From the NCBI GenBank assembly GCA_937924775.1, contig CALDUT010000019.1:62001-126000 (forward strand): a stretch of 64,000 nt of DNA, written 5' to 3'. This DNA comes from an uncultured Gemmata sp. Lineage in GTDB: Bacteria; Planctomycetota; Planctomycetia; Gemmatales; Gemmataceae. The position numbers were made by a program, and so were the translations under genes. The notes under the pieces are model-generated. The model saw only the letters and a program-made list of their open reading frames with translations. It searched no databases and had not been told where the DNA came from. The first letter of the stretch is position 1; every line of letters starts with the position of its first letter. Positions 14,477 to 31,720 of this stretch are shown in pieces.

Positions 14477-16666
14477 ATGGCTGTAGACAAGTGCCTCAAC
14501 CCAGAAACTCTGGCCGCCTTCGCACGCGGTGAACTGCCAGCTCCGACGCTCGCCGCGGTCGCCGAGCATGTGGGGGCATGTGCAGCCTGCTGCCAGGCCC
14601 TCAAGAATGTGCCGGACGATGCGTTAGCTCAATTGGCCCGTGAGGCCGCCGTGAGTGCCCTCCCCGTCCACTCTAAGGCGGTCGGTTCTCCCCCCAGTTG
14701 GCCATCCCTCCATCAACGGGATAGTACAGCTTCCTCCCTGCCGATTCCCCCCGGTTTTGTCGATCATCCCCGCTACCGCATTCTCAGCCAACTGGGTTCC
14801 GGGGGCATGGGAACGGTTTACAAAGCCGAGGATCAGTGGATGGGGCGGGTGGTCGCCATCAAGGTCGTTGCGGCTCATCTGACGACGAAGGACAGCGCCG
14901 TGGCCCGGTTTCGGCGCGAAGTTCAAGCCGCGGCCCGCCTCACCCATCAGAACATCATTCGCGCTTACGACACGGGCGAATCCGGCGGCTGTCAGTTTCT
15001 GGTCATGGAATTCGTCGAAGGTGTCAGTCTGGATAAACTCGTGGCCAAGAAAGGCCCCCTGCCAGTAGCGTTGGCTTGCGCTCTTATTCGCCAAGCCGCG
15101 TTGGGACTTCAACACGCGGCCGAGCAAGGGATGGTCCATCGCGACATCAAACCCCAAAACCTGATGGTGACCCGGAAGGGCCAACTGAAAATTCTAGACT
15201 TTGGCTTGGCCCGCTTTGCCAGCCTCGACGATGACCCGCCAGCCTCCGGACGGCTTCCCTTCGGTGCCGGGACTTTGGCCGCCGCCGCGATGACCAACCC
15301 GAATCTGGTCATGGGCACACCGGACTATCTGTCGCCCGAGCAAGCGAAAAATTCTCACGAAGTTGATCCACGAAGTGATATTTATTCCCTCGGTTGTACC
15401 CTCTACTTTCTGCTCACTGGGAAACCGCCGTTTCACGAGGCGTCAACACTCATTGATAAACTGTTGGCCCATACACACAGCGAACCGGTCTTGGTGCGGC
15501 AGCTCCGCCCGGACATCCCAGCCGGCTTGGAGCCAGTTCTGGTCAAGATGATGGCGAAGAACCCGGCCCAACGTTACGCGAAGGCTTCCGAAGTGGCCGC
15601 GGCGCTGGTGCCGTTTACCCGTTCTGAGGCGGGTCAAGAACCCGGAGCTGAACCGGAGCCGGTCTTCGAGGTGGTTGAGGCCGTCGTGGCCAGCCGTTCA
15701 CAACGGCCGTCGGGATCGCCACCATCACCAAGCCCCGGCCCGGCCGCCCCCGATACCGACCCCGAACGCGGCATAGCCACATTTCGCGATCTCGCCTCGC
15801 CCCGCCGCAAAAAGAAACCTACGCGGAAAGCGGGGCCATGGTGGAAACGCCGCCGGGGCTGGCTTGTCAGCGGCTTTGCGGTGATCATCCTCCTGTTTGT
15901 TGGGATAGTACTGGCTGCTAGTCACACTCAGAAACCGCGGGACAATGCCACATCCGCGAAAACAGCCAAGACCGACCCACTCGCCACGGAATCCCATCCT
16001 CCGCATCCCCCGGTCGAACCTGCCCCCAAAGGCGGACGACCAACCCCCGCACCTGTTCCGCCGCTGGTGATCGCCCCTCCAGCCAAGGAGGAGCTTGTTG
16101 TTCTCTATGTCGTTCCTAGCACAGGAGTTACAATCGCTGACGTGGGTGATGTCCGGAAACGCCTCACCCGAGATCGAGATGGGAAAAAGCCGATCCGCAT
16201 CGACATCGCCGCGACCACCGGAACCCGCAGTTTCTCCGTGTTGGGCCACGAAAGCCTTCCCATCGACGTACATCTGACCGAGGGGATGAAGCTCGACAAA
16301 TACGCTGCGGTGATCTTCAGTGGTTTTCATGTGGACGAATACACGGCCCCTACCGGCAGTGGGCGGCGGGCCGCCTATCACGTCATTCGCGAAATGTACC
16401 GGGCCCAAAAACCGATCGCCGCCATCTGCGCCGGGCAAGCCGTTCTCGCCGCTCATGGGATACTGAAAGATCGTCAAGCGGCGATTCCGACGCGGGTTTT
16501 TGACCATTCGCAATTCAAACGGTATTTCAGCGACCCAAGTATCCGCTGGCAGAAACTGCCGGTGGTGATGGACGACACCGGTGGGCCCCCCCTCATCACG
16601 GCCGCCGGGACCGCCCAAGCCGATCTCTTGGCTCAAGCGCTTCTTCGGGTGATCGACCGCCGGTGA
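14477..16666 (+). CDS. Membrane Ser/Thr kinase with zf-HC2 N-terminus and DJ-1/PfpI-like C-terminal domain
   Basis: A 729-residue protein with four parts. Residues 1-45 contain HVGACAACC (HxxxCxxC), the zinc motif of ZAS anti-sigma factors. A Hanks-type kinase spans about 98-385: LGSGGMGTVY loop, VAIKVV lysine, VHRDIKPQN catalytic loop, LDFGLARF, and GTPDYLSPEQ. After a basic/proline-rich linker, one TM segment lies at about 459-482. Beyond it is a DJ-1/PfpI-like (class I glutamine-amidotransferase-fold) domain, about 538-727, with the nucleophile elbow AAICAGQAVLA (Cys651) and VIFSGFHVDEY. By topology the C-terminal domain would be extracytoplasmic. It lies downstream of the ECF sigma gene, its likely partner. 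The DJ-1-like call is from fold-level motifs. Confidence 0.82.
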   Translation: MAVDKCLNPETLAAFARGELPAPTLAAVAEHVGACAACCQALKNVPDDALAQLAREAAVSALPVHSKAVGSPPSWPSLHQRDSTASSLPIPPGFVDHPRYRILSQLGSGGMGTVYKAEDQWMGRVVAIKVVAAHLTTKDSAVARFRREVQAAARLTHQNIIRAYDTGESGGCQFLVMEFVEGVSLDKLVAKKGPLPVALACALIRQAALGLQHAAEQGMVHRDIKPQNLMVTRKGQLKILDFGLARFASLDDDPPASGRLPFGAGTLAAAAMTNPNLVMGTPDYLSPEQAKNSHEVDPRSDIYSLGCTLYFLLTGKPPFHEASTLIDKLLAHTHSEPVLVRQLRPDIPAGLEPVLVKMMAKNPAQRYAKASEVAAALVPFTRSEAGQEPGAEPEPVFEVVEAVVASRSQRPSGSPPSPSPGPAAPDTDPERGIATFRDLASPRRKKKPTRKAGPWWKRRRGWLVSGFAVIILLFVGIVLAASHTQKPRDNATSAKTAKTDPLATESHPPHPPVEPAPKGGRPTPAPVPPLVIAPPAKEELVVLYVVPSTGVTIADVGDVRKRLTRDRDGKKPIRIDIAATTGTRSFSVLGHESLPIDVHLTEGMKLDKYAAVIFSGFHVDEYTAPTGSGRRAAYHVIREMYRAQKPIAAICAGQAVLAAHGILKDRQAAIPTRVFDHSQFKRYFSDPSIRWQKLPVVMDDTGGPPLITAAGTAQADLLAQALLRVIDRR

Positions 16667-18596: not shown

Positions 18597-19133
18597 TTAC
18601 CTTCCCCAATCGATAACCTCCCACTTTTGGGTGTCGAAGAAAACACCTGTGACGCCGTCGGTGCCGGGAAGCCCTTCAGGTGGCAATTCACTGCGGCGAC
18701 CCACGACGACACTGATCGCCCGTGAGTAGCCTGGGCCATCCGGGAACGGATGGCGAAACTTCGCAAGCAGGGAGTGATCGGCGGCGATGGCATTGGGGTT
18801 GGTCAGAAACGCGACACTGATCGCAGCCAGCCGCATATCCGGGGCTCCCCGTTCGCCCAGCCGCCAAATGAGCAAATCCGGGGTGCGCCAATCCGCGTGG
18901 GGTTCGGCTTGAATGACAATGTGCCCCAAGCCGCGGCGGATCGGCTCGGCCTGATCCCACAAGCGACGGAACTCGTGGTAGAACTCCATGAGGAAGGGCC
19001 GTTCCCGGACCTTCCGGGCCGCGGGCGGCTCCTCCGCTTCGGCGGGGGTGTAAGCCAGACCGTGGGCCGACGCGAAACGGGGGTGGGTTAAGTTCAGTAT
19101 GTCGATTACCAATTGCAGGAATGGGTCGGTCAT
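18597..19133 (-). CDS. Hypothetical protein, 178 residues
   Basis: The frame runs from ATG 19133 (residues MTDPFLQLVIDIL) to 18597. It is soluble, without signal peptide or TM segment, rich in Trp/Arg/Pro, with a hydrophobic strand-like core (HIVIQAEPHADW, DLLIWRLGERG, ISVAFLTNP). I do not recognise the family. The same frame stays open far upstream across the MfnB gene, but that part is an antisense shadow; ATG 19133 with AAAGCA upstream is the sensible start. It lies 104 bases downstream of mfnB on the same strand and may be co-transcribed. Confidence 0.6.
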   Translation of the reverse strand: MTDPFLQLVIDILNLTHPRFASAHGLAYTPAEAEEPPAARKVRERPFLMEFYHEFRRLWDQAEPIRRGLGHIVIQAEPHADWRTPDLLIWRLGERGAPDMRLAAISVAFLTNPNAIAADHSLLAKFRHPFPDGPGYSRAISVVVGRRSELPPEGLPGTDGVTGVFFDTQKWEVIDWGR

Positions 19134-19237
19134 TGCTTTCCCCGTTACAGAACTCCATCGGCCACGGCTTGGTCGGGTTGTTGCCGCTGACTTCGTGGCG
19201 AAGCGTGTTTCGACCCCAGCCGTTGGTTGCCGGGCCG

Positions 19238-19948
19238 TTACACTTTGACAGCAGCCAGCAATTCCTTCCACTTGCGAACGCGGGCGACGTCGATCAGGCC
19301 ATCCCGTTTGTTCGCGGCACACACCGAGCTGCGTACGGCATAATAGTGGGGCATCACTCCTTTGAGCTGCTTGAGATGCTCGGGCCGCAACGATCCCCCC
19401 ACGGCAACGGTCGTGTAAACCCGCTTCAACCCGTCGACAATGTCCGCAATTTCGGCCGGTTTCATGAAATCCAGCAATGTTTTGCCATCTTTGCCGAAGG
19501 TGTCCAGCAGGAAGGCTTTGAAACGGAACCGCTTGGCGAATTTCGCGACTTCCGCCGGGGGAATCGACTTGGCCCGTTCCCAATCCGCGTAGGCCACAAG
19601 TACCATTTCGGTGGCGATGGGCAGTTCGCGGCGGGTATCCAGAAGGTCTTCGCCCCAGCCCGGAGTGTGCGCATAGCCGGCCAGCCCCCATTTCACATAT
19701 TGCAAAGGTAACTCCAAATGCCAATGGGCCGCGGTGATGGCATGGGGCGACCATTCGCCCAACGCCGCGCTGACAGGGACCCGGCCGTGGACCGCATCGA
19801 TCACCGCGGCCACCACCTCGGCTTCGGCAGGAGCTAGGGGCCCTTTGGAAGGTTCCTTCACATCGATAATGTCAGCCCCGCCAGCGAGGGCCGCGGCAAC
19901 TTCCTCAGCAGAACGGACACTGACCAACAATCCGGGTGTGGTAGTCAT
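19238..19948 (-). CDS. mfnB: (5-Formylfuran-3-yl)methyl phosphate synthase, MfnB family
   Basis: MfnB condenses two glyceraldehyde-3-phosphate molecules to the furan precursor of methanofuran, the one-carbon carrier of formyl-H4MPT metabolism. The protein is 236 residues from ATG 19948, a TIM-barrel of normal length. LLVSVRSAEEVAAAL, GGADIIDVKEPSKG (the Asp-x-Lys pair of the active site) and FLLDTFGKDGKTLLD (Asp and Lys four residues apart, as in the archaeal enzyme) are all present. In bacteria the family occurs in methylotrophs and planctomycetes that use H4MPT/methanofuran for formaldehyde oxidation. No other C1 gene is in the window. Confidence 0.85.
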   Translation of the reverse strand: MTTTPGLLVSVRSAEEVAAALAGGADIIDVKEPSKGPLAPAEAEVVAAVIDAVHGRVPVSAALGEWSPHAITAAHWHLELPLQYVKWGLAGYAHTPGWGEDLLDTRRELPIATEMVLVAYADWERAKSIPPAEVAKFAKRFRFKAFLLDTFGKDGKTLLDFMKPAEIADIVDGLKRVYTTVAVGGSLRPEHLKQLKGVMPHYYAVRSSVCAANKRDGLIDVARVRKWKELLAAVKV

Positions 19949-20053
19949 AAGCGGGTGATTCCTTTCACCATAAGGAAGGACGTTCGTTTGGGAACCGCAT
20001 GATAAGCGATCAGGCCGGGATTTTGGAACACGAACCCGTGACGATGTCGCCAA

Positions 20054-20387: not shown

Positions 20388-23300
20388 ATGCCGGTACGTT
20401 TGGTCAGCCAAGAAGAGTTACCTGGTCCGTTGAAGGGCTACCGGCTCATTGAGCGTTTGGGGCGGGGGGGCTTTGGCGAAGTTTGGAAGGTGGAAGCCCC
20501 CGGCGGTCTGTTGAAGGCGGTGAAATTCGTTTTTGGTAATTTGGATGAACTGGACGAAGAAAGCCGCCCGGCGGAACAAGAAGCCAAGGCGCTAGAACGT
20601 GTCAAGGGCATTCGCCACCCGTATATCCTTTCGCTGGAACAAGTTCGCGTTATCGACGGTCAGCTCATCATCGTGATGGAGTTGGCCGACCGCAATCTGT
20701 GGGACCGCTTCCGCGAATGCCGCGGGCAGGGGCTGCCGGGCATTCCCCGCGACGAACTATTGCGTTACATGGAGGAAACCGCCGAAGCTCTCGACTTGAT
20801 GAATAACCACTATCAGATTCAGCACTTAGACATCAAGCCGCAGAACCTGTTTTTGGTCTTCAACCACATCAAAGTTGCGGATTTTGGTTTGGCGAAGGTT
20901 CTGGAGGGGGTAAAGGCGACGGTCACAGGGGGCGTGACACCGGTTTATGCCGCCCCGGAAACGTTTGAAGGCTGGGTGTCTCGCTATTCGGATCAGTACA
21001 GCCTGGCGATTGTCTTCCAAGAGCTGCTGACCGGCTGCCGACCGTTCACCGGCACAAACACGCGACAGTTGTTGATGCAGCACTTGAATGGAACGCCGGA
21101 TCTAGCTGCCCTTCCCCCCGCCGATCAGCCGATCATCAGCCGGGCTTTGGCGAAAATCCCCGAACAGCGCTGGCCGACGTGTACGGATATGGTCCGGGCA
21201 CTGAAAGCCGGCGGTTTGCCGGAAATGCGGACGACCACCGCAGAGCCCCCCCTGCCCGCCGCCCTGGCGGCTCGTTCGCCGGGCGATTCGAGCGTGCCGA
21301 CGATGATCCAAGGCGGTGCTCCGCCCGCCGCTGCAGCGGCCCCTGCCGCAGCGATGGCTTCCGACTCGATTCAAGCCACGCGCATGGCCGGAACAAGCTC
21401 TGGCACAGCCCCGGTGGGAACTTCCCCGGTGATTCGCGAGCGAACTCCGGCCCCGACGACTCTGCCGCCACTGATCAAACCAGGCGGTTCCACCCCGGGG
21501 CTGTCGATCGTCACCCCGATGGCCACGCCGCGGTTGGTCACCCCGGGTACCACGAGCCATAACCCCGCGCAAACCCTGTCGCGACCAGTCATCTTCCAAA
21601 CGGCCCGGATGGGCAGTCTCGGCTTGGCGCCCCCCGAAAGAACCGGTAATGGCGTACTTCTGCCGGCACTGATTGTGGCCCTCGGGCAGACCGGACGGCT
21701 GGTGGTAGAGCAATTCAAGCGGCTCATCACAGCCCGCTACGGCTCTCCCGCCCGCACCCCGCACATCCGCACCCTGTATATCGACACCGACCCCGAGATT
21801 CCCCTCGGTTCCACCGAGGACCCCGCCGCCTTCAGCCCCCGCGAGGTCATTCCGGCCCGGTTGAACCGCTCCACACATTATCTGCAACGCGACTCACTCC
21901 CGGCGGTGGAACAGTGGATGCCGCACGGTTCGCTCTACAAACTGCCCCGGAACCCTGGCCCCACCCGGGGCGTGCGAGCCTTTGGCCGCTTGGCGTTCAT
22001 CGACCACTACCGGGTCATCGCTCAGCGCATTCGTCAGGAAATCGAAACGTTCCTCACCGACGATAGCCTTCTTCACGCCGAAAACATCACCCAACTGGGA
22101 TTACGAACCAATCGACCGCGAGCCTATGTGGTGGCCAGCTTGGCGGGGGGAACCGGCGGCGGCATGTTCCTGGACGTCGCCTATTTGATTCGCCACGAAT
22201 TGCGGCAAGTGGGCTATCTGAAACCGGAAGTCTGCGGCGTGTTTTTCGTCCCACCAGCGGGGGCCCGCGCGCCGCGAACGCCCGCCTTGGGCAATACTTA
22301 TGCCGCATTAACGGAACTGTACCATTTCCAGTCGAAAGCCAGCCGTTACCAGGCCGCGTTCGACAAAATGGAAGCCCCGATCACCGATAGTGAGGTGCCC
22401 TTCGCTCGTATCGCACTGTTACAAATGCCCGTGAACGCGGAAGCTGGCCCCGCCGACCCAGTTTTGGGCACCGCGGCCCGCACCCTCTACCAAGAGTTGC
22501 TCACCCCCGCCGGCCGCATCGTCGATACCGACCGCGATAAACACCTCGCGGAAAACCCGGTCGCAGTCCCCAGTTGCCAAACTTTTGGAGTATTCCGCCT
22601 CAGTTGGCCACGCATGGAACTGCTCGCTACCGCCACGGTCCGTCTGGCTCAGAAACTGTTGCAGCAGTGGGCAAGTAAAGACGCCACCGCGATCAAAGAA
22701 GCCGTCGGGGAGTGGGTTGGGCAGCAATGGCAGAATCGTCGACTGAGTTTCGAATCTCTGGTGGAAACTCTAGAAACTACGGCACGTACCCTGTTGAAGG
22801 AGGCACCAGAGCGGGTCTTCGATTCCCTGGTCGATCCCCTCCGGACTCGCACACCCTCCGGCGGGCGGCTGGATACGACCTGCGTGTGTCTCGTATTCGA
22901 GCAGGTGATTGGACTGGTCGGCAAGCCCGAGGCCGATGCGGCCAGTGGCGGCTCGCTCGCCGCGGCCTTGGATCAGGCGTTTGAAACACATATCAAAGAA
23001 TGGGAAAGTCAGGTCGCGGTGATCGCGGCAACGTTCCTGGAAGTGCCCGGATATCGTTTCGCCGCCGCCGAAGAAGCCACGCGGCAACTGGGGCAGCGGC
23101 TCAAAGCGCAGATTGAAACCCTCGAGCCGGTGCGGGATGAACTCGACCGCGAGCTGCGAACCACCTATAGCCGGCTCGTCCACGCCATCGCGGCCTTGGA
23201 CGCCACCGGGATCGCGGCCACCGTCCAGCGGAAGGCCAACGCCGCCGAAGCCTTGGAGCTACTGCGGGTCTATCCGCGCAAACGCCTGCAATGGCTTTTC

Positions 23301-24062
23301 TTGGATATGGCGCTGTCGTCGTACCGACGGCTCCTGGGGAACGTGCCCGAGTACCTCCGCGAACTCAACGGCTGCCGCGCCGCTTTGCTGGAGATGAGTA
23401 CCGCGATGGCCAAAACCGCGGAGGCCGCTGTTTCCCCCATCGGGCTGGGCAAACTAATCCTGCCCGATGGCTGTGACACCATCGACGCCGCCGCGGATAC
23501 TTTTCTGGCCAGCCTCCCCGCTGAACGGCTGCACGCATGGGAAGAATCGTTGCAAAGTGAGCTGAAACGTAAGTTTCGCGGACTGGGCAATGTCTGTTTG
23601 AAGCCGGCGGAGAAAGGCCCGCCCTTCCGGGAATGGCTGTTGCGACGCTCGCGGGAATTTTTGGACAGCCAATTGGATCATTCGGACCCGGCCACGGTCT
23701 TCTTCCGTTCGCGAACCGAAGAAGGCAGCGCGGTGAAGATCCTGGCGGAAGCTTTCGACGAAGCCGCCCCGACACTCACCGTGCCCGGTTCACGCCCCCA
23801 GGAGTTGATCGTTTTACAAGCCCCCCCAGGCGAGGAAGGCCAACGGCTGATCGACCTGACGCGGGAAACCTTTCCCCATCACGAGATCATCACAGCCCCC
23901 CTGGCCGACGACATCCTGTTTTACCGGGAATTTCCGCAGGTTCCCTTCACCGATCTGCCCCAATTGGGGCCCCATGCCCGCGACGCCTATCAGCATCTCG
24001 ACGGCGACCACCCGCCGCATTCCCGCATGGATGTGGCTTGGCAGCCGCCGCCGGAGTGCTGA
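20388..24062 (+). CDS. Ser/Thr protein kinase fused to a tubulin/FtsZ-like (Tubulin_2) domain
   Basis: A 1224-residue protein. Residues about 15-275 form a Hanks-type kinase: LGRGGFGEVW loop, KAVKFVF lysine, catalytic loop HLDIKPQNLFLV (Leu instead of Arg, so a non-RD kinase), ADFGLAKVL, and YAAPETFEGW. A Pro/Ala/Thr-rich linker follows (about 280-415). From about 420 the sequence reads LIVALGQTGRLVVEQF with LYIDTDPE, then SLAGGTGGGMFLDVAYLIRHEL (about 584-605), matching the nucleotide-binding G-box (GGTGxG) of the tubulin/FtsZ superfamily as seen in Tubulin_2 proteins. The remaining 500 residues are mainly helical. No TM segment is evident, so it is probably cytoplasmic. It stands alone as a transcription unit. 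Function is unknown; phosphorylation-controlled filament formation is an inference. Confidence 0.82.
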   Translation: MPVRLVSQEELPGPLKGYRLIERLGRGGFGEVWKVEAPGGLLKAVKFVFGNLDELDEESRPAEQEAKALERVKGIRHPYILSLEQVRVIDGQLIIVMELADRNLWDRFRECRGQGLPGIPRDELLRYMEETAEALDLMNNHYQIQHLDIKPQNLFLVFNHIKVADFGLAKVLEGVKATVTGGVTPVYAAPETFEGWVSRYSDQYSLAIVFQELLTGCRPFTGTNTRQLLMQHLNGTPDLAALPPADQPIISRALAKIPEQRWPTCTDMVRALKAGGLPEMRTTTAEPPLPAALAARSPGDSSVPTMIQGGAPPAAAAAPAAAMASDSIQATRMAGTSSGTAPVGTSPVIRERTPAPTTLPPLIKPGGSTPGLSIVTPMATPRLVTPGTTSHNPAQTLSRPVIFQTARMGSLGLAPPERTGNGVLLPALIVALGQTGRLVVEQFKRLITARYGSPARTPHIRTLYIDTDPEIPLGSTEDPAAFSPREVIPARLNRSTHYLQRDSLPAVEQWMPHGSLYKLPRNPGPTRGVRAFGRLAFIDHYRVIAQRIRQEIETFLTDDSLLHAENITQLGLRTNRPRAYVVASLAGGTGGGMFLDVAYLIRHELRQVGYLKPEVCGVFFVPPAGARAPRTPALGNTYAALTELYHFQSKASRYQAAFDKMEAPITDSEVPFARIALLQMPVNAEAGPADPVLGTAARTLYQELLTPAGRIVDTDRDKHLAENPVAVPSCQTFGVFRLSWPRMELLATATVRLAQKLLQQWASKDATAIKEAVGEWVGQQWQNRRLSFESLVETLETTARTLLKEAPERVFDSLVDPLRTRTPSGGRLDTTCVCLVFEQVIGLVGKPEADAASGGSLAAALDQAFETHIKEWESQVAVIAATFLEVPGYRFAAAEEATRQLGQRLKAQIETLEPVRDELDRELRTTYSRLVHAIAALDATGIAATVQRKANAAEALELLRVYPRKRLQWLFLDMALSSYRRLLGNVPEYLRELNGCRAALLEMSTAMAKTAEAAVSPIGLGKLILPDGCDTIDAAADTFLASLPAERLHAWEESLQSELKRKFRGLGNVCLKPAEKGPPFREWLLRRSREFLDSQLDHSDPATVFFRSRTEEGSAVKILAEAFDEAAPTLTVPGSRPQELIVLQAPPGEEGQRLIDLTRETFPHHEIITAPLADDILFYREFPQVPFTDLPQLGPHARDAYQHLDGDHPPHSRMDVAWQPPPEC

Positions 24063-27284: not shown

Positions 27285-28727
27285 ATGGAGCTTGTCAAAG
27301 AAATTCGCGACCGCGACACCGCCAGCCAATACATTCTTGAAGGATTATGGCTGCAACGGGTCGCCAAACCAACGGCCAAGACAGTTAAGCCGGCGTTAGA
27401 ATGGGCCATGGAGATCGCTGCCGCCGGTTATCCGCTGCCGCCGATTGGCTTGGTCGCGGATGTGGGGCATGTGGCCTTGGGCATGGATTTTGACCAGCGG
27501 TCGCAGGACGTGATACCGGTGGCGGGCTGGCCCCCAGCCCTCAGCCGCAGTTATGAAGACCACATTTTGGGGAAGTTATACGCGGATTGGACTTTTGAAC
27601 GAGCCAGTGACGCTCTGCGGCGTTACAACGCGGCCGATCGCCGCCGCGGGCTGGCCTACATCATCAACCAAATCCGCGAACGGGCGGGCTTTCCCGGGAT
27701 ACTCCTTCCCCCCGCGGTGATCCGTACACAACTCAACAGCCCGCCCGATGAGGTTCTGCGTACCGGCTGGGATATCCTCGAACGCGATGGGCCTTTACCG
27801 TTGCTCATCGAAATGTACACGGCTCTTTGCGCAGCGGGCCGCCGCACTGCAGAACTGCTCGACAAAGCCGACATTCTTGCCCTCGAACAAGGCACCGCCT
27901 TGGCGGACATGGGCCAATACGTCGCGCACCGGCAAATTCTCCAGGCGACCGCGACATTGCTGGACCGGCTCCCGGCTCGGCCCGTCAAGCCACTGCTGGG
28001 CCGCAAGGAAGTGCCCACCCGCATCCATGAAGAAGATCAGTACCCCGTCGGCGGCTACAGTTCCATCTCAACACGCGGTTCTATCGAAAGCCTACTGCAT
28101 TCTCAACTGGCCTACATGGAACCGCAAAGCCCCGATTTGTTCGACATGAAGTTCGTCCGCGACGAACTTTTCTACTACTCGCGGGACGAAAACCAATTCC
28201 TCCGCCGTCGTCGGGCATTTGTGTTTGTACTGTTCCCCGATCTTTATGTGACCCGGCTCGGCAAAGACGTGGAACTGCCCTACCAACGGATTGTCTTGAT
28301 TCAATCGCTGATTGTGGCTCTGGTGGAGAAACTCACCGATTGGCTCAGTTACGACGCGATCCGTTTTGACATCCTATTTGTTCAAGAAAAAGGCAAAAAT
28401 CCGCTCGACGAGGAAGCCCACCTCCTGCGGTTATTGCTCCGTGAGCTCATCGGGCGCGGCGACGGGGCGATCGTCGAGATCGCCAACCAAGCCGCAGTAG
28501 AAACCTACCTCACCCATCTGGCCCGCACGGCACAAGTTCAGGCATTGGCCATAGCCACCGAACCGCTGGAGATGGAGCTAGATTTTGTGGGGGTGACACA
28601 AGTCGTCGTCAGCGGGCCGCGGCCGGCCATAGGGTCAGGCGACGGCATCGTCGCGGAACTGGAAGGCGACGACGCCTTCGAGGTCTGGCAACAAACCGCC
28701 CTGCGTGTCTTGCAGCTGTGGGTGTGA
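27285..28727 (+). CDS. Uncharacterised 480-residue cytoplasmic protein
   Basis: I do not recognise a named family. No signal peptide or TM segment is seen. The N-terminal half (1-260) is helical and rich in Arg/Leu; a conserved-looking core at about 285-385 reads MKFVRDELFYYSRDEN, RRRRAFVFVLFPDLYVTRL, and ELPYQRIVLIQSLIVALVEKL followed by AIRFDILFVQE. The alternating hydrophobic strand/helix pattern could be a degenerate von Willebrand A-like fold, but no MIDAS motif is present. A candidate -10 element TATAAG lies about 40 bases before ATG 27285. It is convergent with the SGNH hydrolase gene. Confidence 0.6.
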   Translation: MELVKEIRDRDTASQYILEGLWLQRVAKPTAKTVKPALEWAMEIAAAGYPLPPIGLVADVGHVALGMDFDQRSQDVIPVAGWPPALSRSYEDHILGKLYADWTFERASDALRRYNAADRRRGLAYIINQIRERAGFPGILLPPAVIRTQLNSPPDEVLRTGWDILERDGPLPLLIEMYTALCAAGRRTAELLDKADILALEQGTALADMGQYVAHRQILQATATLLDRLPARPVKPLLGRKEVPTRIHEEDQYPVGGYSSISTRGSIESLLHSQLAYMEPQSPDLFDMKFVRDELFYYSRDENQFLRRRRAFVFVLFPDLYVTRLGKDVELPYQRIVLIQSLIVALVEKLTDWLSYDAIRFDILFVQEKGKNPLDEEAHLLRLLLRELIGRGDGAIVEIANQAAVETYLTHLARTAQVQALAIATEPLEMELDFVGVTQVVVSGPRPAIGSGDGIVAELEGDDAFEVWQQTALRVLQLWV

Positions 28728-28748: not shown

Positions 28749-29450
28749 TCACTTCTTCGGCAGAAGCTTCCGGATTTCCGCGTTCCACACCTCGTAGCCT
28801 TGATCGGACAGATGCAGGCCATCCTTGACAAACAGCTCCGGGATGGGCTGACCATCGGCATTGAGCATCCGCGGAACAATGTCCACAAACACTAACCCTT
28901 TCTCCTGTTGGCAGAAGTCTTTCACCAACGCATTCGCCTTTTTCTGCACCTCGTACAACTTCCACCGGGCCAGACTCGGCTTGATGGCGATGAATAGAAT
29001 GCGGCACTGCGGATTGTCTTGGCGCACTACAGCCACAAATTGTCGGAAGTCGTTGAGGACTTGCTCCGCGGAATGACCGCGAGCGATGTCATTATCGCCG
29101 GCATAAAAGACGATAGTACTTGGGCGAAACGGTGTGATGATGCGTGGAGCAAAGTGCGTGCTATCGGCGATGATGGAGCCGCCAAACCCGACATTCACAT
29201 AGCCTTTGCCAGGAAAGGACTTTTCCACATCCCATCGGACAATGCTCGAACTGCCGACAAAGAACACGCTCTGCGGTTGGGGCGGATTCTCCTTGAGTCT
29301 TTGCTCATGAGCGGCAATGCTCTTTTCCCAACGGGCGAAGTTGTTCGCCAGCCGTGGCATGGGAGCCACGGGCAACGTGTCCCCCCCCTGCGCCCCCAAC
29401 GGCGGCACGAAAGCGAGGAAAAAACCGACAGCGAGTCGCAATCGACACAT
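28749..29450 (-). CDS. Secreted SGNH/GDSL-family hydrolase
   Basis: A 233-residue predicted esterase or carbohydrate deacetylase. It starts at ATG 29450 with a signal peptide (CRLRLAVGFFLAFVPPLGAQG). SGNH blocks are visible: FFVGSSSIVRW (block I Ser), NVGFGGSIIAD (block II Gly), VFYAGDNDI (block III Asn), and DGLHLSDQGYEVW (block V Asp and His). The frame stays open upstream antisense to the next gene; the signal peptide fixes the start. Substrate is unknown; such proteins in planctomycetes often act on acetylated polysaccharides. Confidence 0.85.
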   Translation of the reverse strand: MCRLRLAVGFFLAFVPPLGAQGGDTLPVAPMPRLANNFARWEKSIAAHEQRLKENPPQPQSVFFVGSSSIVRWDVEKSFPGKGYVNVGFGGSIIADSTHFAPRIITPFRPSTIVFYAGDNDIARGHSAEQVLNDFRQFVAVVRQDNPQCRILFIAIKPSLARWKLYEVQKKANALVKDFCQQEKGLVFVDIVPRMLNADGQPIPELFVKDGLHLSDQGYEVWNAEIRKLLPKK

Positions 29451-29558
29451 GGTTCCATGCCTTGGAGATAGAAACCACCCGGATACTCGAAACCGCGGCC
29501 GAACATTCCGTCGACTTCCAGTAGAATGATAAGGACTTCCTGGAGCTAGCAGAATTTT

Positions 29559-30398
29559 ATGAATCCCCCTCACTTTTCTGACCCGGACTCCGGCCCAGCT
29601 CCGGCTCGCCGCGCGTTCTTGCGTGGCGGCTGGGTGGGTGGCCTGATTGGGTTGACCGCCGGCGGTAGTGGCGGTTTTGTCTATGGTCGCTTCCAGCATC
29701 GCCTGGGAGAATGGCGGTCGCCACAGGAGGAAGAAATCGCCGCGGAAGAGAAGCGCCACGGGGCCGTATCCTACGCCCAGTTCGGGGAAGACCTCATCAT
29801 GAAAGGCTGGTTCCCGCCGCTGCGACTCGAAAAACCCACTTATCTCGACATCGGCTCTGCCGAGCCAATCTACGCCAATAACACCTATCTCTTCTACACC
29901 CTCGGCGGCCGCGGCGTTCTGGTGGAGCCCAACGTCGCGCTTTCCGACAAGATTCGCCGGATTCGCCCGGGCGATCGATTGGTTGTCGCAGGAATGGGTG
30001 TGGAGGAACAGCCAGACGCCGATTACTTCGTCATGTCGGCCCCTGATCTGAACACCTTCGATCGGCAGCAAGCCGAACATGTGGAGAAAACCAGCCCGCA
30101 TCGGGTGGTGCAAGTGGTGAAGATGCCGCTGGTCACCCTCCATCGCATCATCACCGAGTATTTGGGCGGGCAAGCCCCCGACATCCTCTCCATCGACATC
30201 GAAGGTTGGGACTTCGCAGTCCTCAACACGCTCGATTGGACCCGTTACCGCCCCAAGATCATCTGCGTGGAAACGGTCATTTACAATACGTTCCAGCACA
30301 ATCCACAGACCCCGCGGCTCTTGGCCGAGAAGGGGTATGAACTTTGCGGAATGACGTTTGCCAACAAGATTTATGTGGATCAGCAGTTGTTGACGTAG
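29559..30398 (+). CDS. FkbM-family methyltransferase with N-terminal Tat-like or anchor segment
   Basis: A 279-residue protein. Residues 17-45 read ARRAFLRGGWVGG followed by a Gly-rich hydrophobic stretch, resembling a twin-arginine signal or anchor, unusual for this cytosolic family. The methyltransferase core has AQFGEDLIM and YLDIGSAEPIYANNTY (SAM motif I), GVLVEPN, and DILSIDIEGWDFAVL (about 205-220), the FkbM signature. The substrate is probably a glycan or other small molecule. The stop is 32 bases before the nuoD start, so the two may share a transcript. Confidence 0.8.
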   Translation: MNPPHFSDPDSGPAPARRAFLRGGWVGGLIGLTAGGSGGFVYGRFQHRLGEWRSPQEEEIAAEEKRHGAVSYAQFGEDLIMKGWFPPLRLEKPTYLDIGSAEPIYANNTYLFYTLGGRGVLVEPNVALSDKIRRIRPGDRLVVAGMGVEEQPDADYFVMSAPDLNTFDRQQAEHVEKTSPHRVVQVVKMPLVTLHRIITEYLGGQAPDILSIDIEGWDFAVLNTLDWTRYRPKIICVETVIYNTFQHNPQTPRLLAEKGYELCGMTFANKIYVDQQLLT

Positions 30399-30430
30399 AA
30401 TGCCGCTTGCGCCCTGCAGGATGTCTCGCC

Positions 30431-31720
30431 ATGCCACCCGAAGATCCGACTGTCATTGAATTTGATGTTCGCACCGACGAAATGCTCGTCAATATGGGGC
30501 CGCAGCACCCCAGTACGCACGGCGTACTGCGTCTGGTATTACGCACCGATGGCGAGGTGGTCTCGGATGTTCAGCCGCACTTGGGTTATTTGCATCGCTG
30601 TGCGGAGAAAATTGGGGAAAATGTCACACCGATTCAGTTCATCCCTTACACCGACCGGATGGATTATCTCGCCGGGATGAACATGAACCTCGGCTTCTCG
30701 CTGGCGATTGAGAAGCTCAGTGGTTTGGTGATTCCCGAAAAGGCCCAAATTATTCGCGTGTTGATTTGTGAATTGAACCGGATTGCATCGCACCTGGTGG
30801 GCATGGGAGCGTATGGTCTTGATTTGGGGAGTTTCTCGCCGTTTCTTTACGCGTTCCGCGAGCGCGAACACATTCTCGACCTCTTTGAAGAGGTGTGCGG
30901 GGCCCGGCTGACGTACAGCTATCTGACCATCGGCGGGGCCCACGACGACCTGCCCGAAGGTTTCACCACCCGCGTTCGCCAATTTCTCGACTATTTCCGG
31001 CCGCGCATCCCGGAATACCATGCACTTCTGACCGATAATCACATCTTCGTGAAGCGGACGGCGGGAATCGGCGTTCTCACGAAGGAGAAGGCCCTCAGTT
31101 ACGGCTGCACTGGCCCAGTGCTGCGAGCCTCCCTCGATCGTACCCAGGGCGACCCGGAGTGGGATTTACGCAAAATCGAACCCTACAGCGGCTATCAGCA
31201 CTACCAGTTCGATGTGCCCATCCCGCCGTTTGACCGCACCCCGCCGGATGCCGTGATCGGCGACTGCTGGCACCGGTTCTATGTGCGTATGCTCGAAGTT
31301 GTTCAGTCGATACGCATCTGCGAGCAAGCGGTGGAGAAGTACGACGCGCTCCACGCCGAGGGGGAAAACGTGAAGGCCGAATTCGCCGCCCGCAAGCCGA
31401 CTCTGACCGCGGACGAAGCCAAAAAAGCGGAGGCCAAATTGGCGGAGTTGATGAAAACCAAGTATGCCCACCGCGTCGAGCCGCCGCGGCATCTGCCCCC
31501 GGGGGAATGTTACGTTGAGACCGAATGCCCCCGCGGGCAGATGGGTTTTTATGTAGTGGGTCGGCCGTCCAAGGAGGCCGTTCCGCTGCGGGTGCGGGCC
31601 CGGTCCAGTTGCTTTGCGAACTTGAGTGTAACCAACGAGTTGTGTCGCGGCTGCCTGGTCGCCGACATTCCGGCGATCGTGGGTAGTATCGACATCGTCA
31701 TGGGCGAAATCGACCGGTAG
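30431..31720 (+). CDS. nuoD: NADH-quinone oxidoreductase subunit D (NuoD), with insertion
   Basis: NuoD is the 49-kDa subunit of complex I lining the quinone site. The protein is 429 residues from ATG 30431. Family motifs are MGPQHPSTHGVLRL (about 17-30), GYLHRCAEKIGE, DRMDYLAGM, ELNRIASHLV, and the C-terminal ADIPAIVGSIDIVMGEIDR. A charged segment of about 40 residues rich in Lys/Glu/Ala (about 307-350, including ALHAEGENVKAEFAARKP) interrupts the usual sequence before ECPRGQMGFY. No other nuo gene is in the window, so the complex I genes are scattered in this genome or this is a lone paralogue. Confidence 0.93.
   Translation: MPPEDPTVIEFDVRTDEMLVNMGPQHPSTHGVLRLVLRTDGEVVSDVQPHLGYLHRCAEKIGENVTPIQFIPYTDRMDYLAGMNMNLGFSLAIEKLSGLVIPEKAQIIRVLICELNRIASHLVGMGAYGLDLGSFSPFLYAFREREHILDLFEEVCGARLTYSYLTIGGAHDDLPEGFTTRVRQFLDYFRPRIPEYHALLTDNHIFVKRTAGIGVLTKEKALSYGCTGPVLRASLDRTQGDPEWDLRKIEPYSGYQHYQFDVPIPPFDRTPPDAVIGDCWHRFYVRMLEVVQSIRICEQAVEKYDALHAEGENVKAEFAARKPTLTADEAKKAEAKLAELMKTKYAHRVEPPRHLPPGECYVETECPRGQMGFYVVGRPSKEAVPLRVRARSSCFANLSVTNELCRGCLVADIPAIVGSIDIVMGEIDR

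What the first reader, a model, noticed from the sequence alone, without database searches (positions are those of the whole stretch)
20388..24062. Ser/Thr kinase fused to a tubulin/FtsZ-like domain in one 1224-residue protein
A complete non-RD Hanks kinase is joined by a Pro/Ala-rich linker to a region with the tubulin-superfamily G-box (GGTGGG, about 586-592) and a following helix-rich 500 residues. Tubulin_2 relatives are known in bacteria, and Makarova and Koonin described FtsZ-like families implicated in membrane remodelling, but a covalent kinase fusion would put filament formation under direct phosphorylation control. Planctomycetes lack canonical FtsZ, which adds interest.
Basis: partly seen in the sequence, partly recalled or inferred. 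Interest (0 to 1): 0.8.

Follow-up and report, generated by a model that had tools for sequence, protein, structure and literature searches.

The report
Kinase–tubulin-like fusion protein of Gemmataceae
A bacterium without the usual division protein FtsZ carries a real protein that joins a protein kinase to a distant tubulin relative; the fusion was already described in 2010, but its frequent placement beside a chromosome-condensation gene in related bacteria looks like a new clue to its job.

Summary
One uninterrupted 1,224-codon ORF (20388-24062, +) has a full protein-kinase domain (Pfam E=1.7e-31) and a full-length Tubulin_2 match (E=1.1e-37). It is not a missed stop: of 92 distinct Tubulin_2 proteins I collected, 80 have the kinase at the N-terminus, and the kinase catalytic residues are invariant in 59 of 59 aligned fusions. 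The own genome has three such paralogs and no PF00091 FtsZ/tubulin.

The fusion is not new. Makarova and Koonin (2010) reported four planctomycete FtsZl1 proteins with an extra N-terminal kinase; papers of 2023 and 2024 repeat it.

What I add: both halves give the same paralog clades, so the fusion is old and inherited as a unit; two paralogs often sit in tandem; in 11 of 45 Gemmataceae genomes (11 genera) scpA (SMC-condensin) lies directly downstream, though not in the window's own genome. I found no mention of the scpA link in the papers searched.

Relation to FtsZ is supported only for the N-terminal GTP-binding half. The polymerisation-critical part is not detectable, and AlphaFold was uninformative with the two-sequence alignment allowed. 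Filament formation and its control by phosphorylation remain hypotheses.

The parts
20388..24062 (+). kinase-Tubulin_2 fusion gene, 1,224 aa
   Evidence: single open frame; colinear homolog L004
20439..21128 (+). Ser/Thr kinase domain, residues 18-247
   Evidence: Pfam PF00069 E=1.7e-31
20823..20846 (+). catalytic loop HLDIKPQN, residues 146-153 (non-RD)
   Evidence: H146, D148, K150 and N153 invariant in 59/59 fusions
20880..20888 (+). DFG motif, residues 165-167
   Evidence: invariant in 59/59 fusions
21258..21647 (+). Pro/Ala/Ser/Thr-rich linker, residues about 291-420
   Evidence: sequence; least conserved segment, 77% identity to L004
21669..22661 (+). Tubulin_2 (FtsZ-like 1) domain, residues 428-758
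   Evidence: Pfam PF13809 E=1.1e-37
22146..22163 (+). G-box GGTGGG, residues 587-592 (T4-like)
   Evidence: conserved GGTG[S/G]G in the fusions; aligns with FtsZ GGGTGTG
22668..24062 (+). C-terminal region, residues 761-1224, no known family
   Evidence: no Pfam match; helices only in a low-confidence model
19238..20053 (-). divergent 4HFC-P synthase (MfnB-like) gene, conserved neighbour of the A-type paralog
   Evidence: PF04476 E=9.9e-54; found divergent in nine related loci

Best explanation
The gene encodes a cytoplasmic FtsZ-like 1 (Tubulin_2) GTP-binding protein with its own Ser/Thr kinase at the N-terminus, one of a three-paralog set in Gemmataceae. Shown: the domain order, the intact kinase active site, the conserved GTP-box, joint inheritance of both halves and strong purifying selection. 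Inferred: the GTP-bound tubulin-like domain self-assembles, perhaps with its tandem paralog; assembly brings kinase domains together; they phosphorylate the linker, the tubulin-like part, the C-terminal part or a bound partner and so tune assembly. The recurrent scpA neighbour suggests that the process served is chromosome condensation or segregation coordinated with FtsZ-less division, rather than membrane remodelling alone.
For: Domain matches. Invariant kinase residues and conserved G-box in 59 fusions. dN/dS 0.035-0.11. 80 of 92 distinct Tubulin_2 proteins fused, including in other families of the class. The same clades in the kinase and tubulin trees. No FtsZ in the own genome and 20 relatives. 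kinTub, often an A-B tandem, followed directly by scpA on the same strand in 11 genomes of 11 genera, against a chance of about 0.00075 per genome. No transmembrane-like segment stands out: the best 19-residue hydropathy is 1.7, at the T1 region. Kinases acting on FtsZ in trans are known (PMC12747378, PMC2784874, PMC6052341).
Against: Profile comparison with FtsZ stops before T6-H7/T7, the elements for polymerisation and GTP hydrolysis. No confident structure. scpA adjacency is limited to part of Gemmataceae and absent in the own genome (scpA on C1, paralogs on C2, C8, C19) and in the other families tested; it may be one ancestral operon kept in several lineages. No GTP-binding, phosphorylation or localisation data.
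Confidence: 0.45

Rival explanations
1. Membrane remodelling: as Makarova and Koonin propose for FtsZl1, the protein builds a membrane-shaping machine (vWA, GTPase, OmpA partners) and the kinase regulates it.
For: Published genome context for FtsZl1; Gemmataceae have extensive internal membranes (background knowledge); an ivWA gene lies 3.2 kb downstream in the window.
Against: The vWA neighbour is kept only in the nearest relative; no vWA, GTPase or OmpA partner recurs beside the fusion in the loci compared (only the recurrent neighbours were identified by Pfam).
Confidence: 0.25
2. Non-filamentous switch: the tubulin-like part binds GTP but does not polymerise; it senses nucleotide and controls the attached kinase, which signals to other proteins.
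For: No T6-H7/T7 detectable; the kinase is the most conserved segment.
Against: Characterised tubulin-superfamily proteins form filaments (Makarova and Koonin's argument); the missing elements could be too diverged to see.
Confidence: 0.25
3. Artefact: missed stop codon or frameshift that joins two neighbouring genes.
For: None found.
Against: Open frame; 85% identical colinear homolog; 80 fused homologs.
Confidence: 0.01

Closest known systems
FtsZ-like 1 (FtsZl1) family with N-terminal kinase in Planctomycetes (Makarova and Koonin 2010, PMC2875224; Pfam Tubulin_2 PF13809)
   Same: Same architecture in the same phylum: N-terminal kinase, FtsZ-like domain, long C-terminal region; the 2010 paper counts four such planctomycete proteins.
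   Different: Nothing categorical. Further members, three paralog clades, tandem pairs and scpA linkage are added here.
Canonical FtsZ / tubulin (PF00091)
   Same: T1-like GxGxxG, DTD and GGTG[S/G]G motifs align in register with FtsZ.
   Different: No PF00091 match; similarity ends before T6-H7/T7; long inserts; no FtsZ or tubulin C-terminal domain found by Pfam.
PknA/PknB/PrkC-type Hanks kinases that phosphorylate FtsZ in trans
   Same: Bacterial Ser/Thr kinases such as PknE and PknA are among the nearest solved kinases; a kinase acting on a tubulin-superfamily protein would be analogous.
   Different: Here the kinase is covalently joined to the tubulin-like part; no PASTA match; non-RD catalytic loop; no transmembrane helix apparent.

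Membership tests
FtsZl1 / Tubulin_2 (PF13809) | Match to the family profile above the curated cut-off | tested here: met
   130.5 bits against 27, profile 1-355/356
FtsZl1 / Tubulin_2 (PF13809) | GTP-box GGTGxG with T1 glycine loop | tested here: met
   G433, G592 and D596 invariant, G436 and G587 nearly so, in 59 fusions
FtsZl1 / Tubulin_2 (PF13809) | Coiled coil and helical C-terminal domain | tested here: inconclusive
   Long C-terminal region without Pfam match; helices only in a model with mean pLDDT 32
FtsZ/tubulin superfamily fold | Homology to the FtsZ GTP-binding half | tested here: met
   hhalign score 36.4, E=0.00046 over 145 columns; above 40/40 column shuffles (best 22.8), exceeded by 1 of 60 block shuffles (36.6). 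Moderate support, driven largely by the G-box
FtsZ/tubulin superfamily fold | T7 loop and H7 helix, needed for GTP hydrolysis and polymerisation | tested here: not met
   Alignment ends before T6-H7; the elements could be too diverged to see by sequence
FtsZ/tubulin superfamily fold | Predicted or solved structure with the fold | tested here: inconclusive
   AlphaFold pLDDT 32 and 34 with only two sequences; no PDB chain matched by the profile
Canonical FtsZ | PF00091 match | tested here: not met
Hanks-type kinase with intact active site | Lys, alpha-C Glu, catalytic Asp, Asn and DFG present | tested here: met
   all invariant in 59/59
Hanks-type kinase with intact active site | Measured kinase activity | not testable with these tools
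   needs an in vitro assay

The most novel reading that the evidence does not exclude
In FtsZ-less Gemmataceae, paired kinase-tubulin paralogs (A and B) act as a two-subunit, self-phosphorylating tubulin-like system that works with the SMC-ScpAB condensin to couple chromosome segregation to division.
Probability: 0.15. Interest if true: 0.75.

Novelty: new member of a known kind. Interest (0 to 1): 0.35.

Why it matters
How planctomycetes divide and segregate chromosomes without FtsZ is an open question. A conserved kinase-tubulin family, often next to scpA, gives a concrete set of genes to delete and test. The fusion itself adds little beyond what was published in 2010.

Tried and rejected
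Missed stop or frameshift: rejected (colinear homologs). Sequence search of the PDB with the tubulin-like part: no credible match. First hhalign against FtsZ, with N-truncated FtsZ rows: score 34.1, but block shuffles reached 34.9, so I repeated it with complete rows and a broader Tubulin_2 set. Mobile-element origin: no relative in the phage records or the viral contigs, two distant unfused ones on plasmids. Link with the nearby ivWA gene: conserved only in the nearest relative. The 385-aa ORF at 18597-19754 overlaps the Pfam-supported MfnB-like gene 19238-20053 in another frame, so it is probably not a gene as listed.

Full report
What is there. The ORF 20388-24062 (+) encodes 1,224 residues without an internal stop. 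Pfam finds a protein kinase at 18-247 and Tubulin_2 at 428-758, over the full length of that profile. The kinase is complete, with HLD instead of HRD, so 'non-RD' is correct. The linker at about 291-420 is Pro/Ala/Ser/Thr-rich. The C-terminal region has no known family.

Is it real? A relative, Gemmata sp. SKYG68 (L004), has the same fusion, 85% identical over residues 411-1224. dN/dS by segment is 0.035 (kinase), 0.11 (linker), 0.06 (tubulin-like) and 0.10 (C-terminal); dS is about 1.0-1.2, so these are rough. Of 92 distinct Tubulin_2 proteins collected, 80 have the kinase N-terminal to the tubulin-like part. Of the other 12, at least two (L074, L081) are cut by contig ends. The sample is weighted to Gemmataceae. 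In 59 aligned fusions K46, E65, H146, D148, K150, N153 and D165-F166-G167 are invariant; residue 147 is Leu in 58 and Met in one. The kinase therefore looks functional in every member aligned.

Distribution. In the window's family, 39 of 44 good-quality genomes have Tubulin_2 genes, commonly two or three. Across the class sample 86 of 186 good genomes do; across the phylum sample 16 of 209. Fusions occur in the window's family and in other families of the order and class, though not every class member is fused. The Tubulin_2 proteins from outside the class that I collected were not recognised as fused. The own genome has three Tubulin_2 genes, all fused, and no PF00091 match; neither do 20 relatives, while the search rings in 13 of 14 control genomes.

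History. The tubulin-half tree separates a C clade, which groups with the fusions of other families of the class, from the A and B types of Gemmataceae. In the kinase-half tree the A, B, C and outgroup sets used for labelling are each one side of a branch. Both trees are quick searches with many weak inner branches, and a number of Gemmataceae rows fall in neither the A nor the B set. The simplest reading is an old fusion, inherited as a unit and duplicated in Gemmataceae.

Neighbourhood. In the window the gene is flanked by a divergent 4HFC-P synthase (MfnB-like) gene and, downstream, a convergent thiC. MfnB is divergent from the A-type gene in all nine related loci that form this cluster. 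In many loci the A gene is followed closely by B on the same strand. In 11 genomes of 11 genera, of 45 family genomes with hits to both families (my count), scpA (PF02616) follows a kinTub gene directly on the same strand: G001, G008, G009, G010, G012, G020, G024, G026, G033, G039, G046. In G020 the Tubulin_2 gene is cut by the contig end, so its kinase part was not seen. G046 has mfnB, one kinTub gene and scpA in a row, which may be the ancestral order. The adjacency does not hold in the window's own genome or in the other families tested. I found no mention of ScpA in Makarova and Koonin, nor a paper on this link in the library search that combined these terms; the library lacks most subscription papers, so this is weak evidence of novelty.

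Relation to FtsZ. A broad Tubulin_2 profile (78 rows) against six FtsZ sequences gives score 36.4, E=0.00046 over 145 columns, with the T1, DTD and GGTG motifs in register. It exceeds all 40 column-shuffled controls (best 22.8), but one of 60 block-shuffled controls reached 36.6, so the signal rests largely on the G-box. HHsearch probability was only 33%. Makarova and Koonin report an HHpred E-value of 1.4e-5 for an archaeal family member. The alignment ends before T6-H7, as they found. Hence membership in the FtsZl1 family is well supported, an FtsZ-like GTP-binding half is moderately supported, and filament formation is unproven. Structure prediction gave no usable model.

Known or new. The architecture is in the literature: four planctomycete FtsZl1 proteins with an extra N-terminal kinase (PMC2875224); [quoted passage not shown] the tubulin-like domain as the commonest associated domain among those found solely in cytoplasmic planctomycete Ser/Thr kinases (PMC11032199). 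This gene is a new member of that kind.

Mechanism. I favour a GTP-binding tubulin-like protein whose self-association and kinase activity regulate each other, with chromosome condensation or segregation as a likely process in Gemmataceae given scpA. Only anatomy, conservation and gene neighbourhood are shown; assembly, phosphorylation and the process served are inferred. Phosphorylation of FtsZ in trans by Ser/Thr kinases is known from several bacteria (titles and abstracts), which makes the idea plausible but does not test it.

Noticed in passing
window 27285-28727 (+): vWA protein of the FtsH ternary systems (PF19997 E=3e-40, with PF19996); kept next door in L004 only. Whether an FtsH partner lies nearby was not examined.
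   Followed up: partly
window 14477-16666 (+): Another Ser/Thr kinase, fused to a C-terminal DJ-1/PfpI domain, with a weak zinc-finger-like N-terminus; an unusual domain combination.
   Followed up: no
L060, L062, L069, L071-L078: scpA directly downstream of kinase-Tubulin_2 genes on the same strand in 11 Gemmataceae genera; in A-B tandems the second paralog adjoins scpA.
   Followed up: yes
L062 6834-7289 (-), also L067, L069, L077, L082: ASCH-domain gene beside the kinase-Tubulin_2 gene, mostly next to mfnB, in several Gemmataceae; not seen in the window locus.
   Followed up: partly
L005/L080 (G031) and L105 (G355): An additional, unfused Tubulin_2 protein in two Gemmataceae, with the strongest PF13809 scores of the survey (E about 1e-56).
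   Followed up: no
L098 7950-11594 (+): Unfused Tubulin_2 gene on an Azospirillum plasmid, among OmpA-family and caspase-family genes.
   Followed up: no
L004 15251-16859 (-): The GDSL lipase gene of the window (28749-30437) matches two overlapping frames in L004, suggesting a frameshift there.
   Followed up: no
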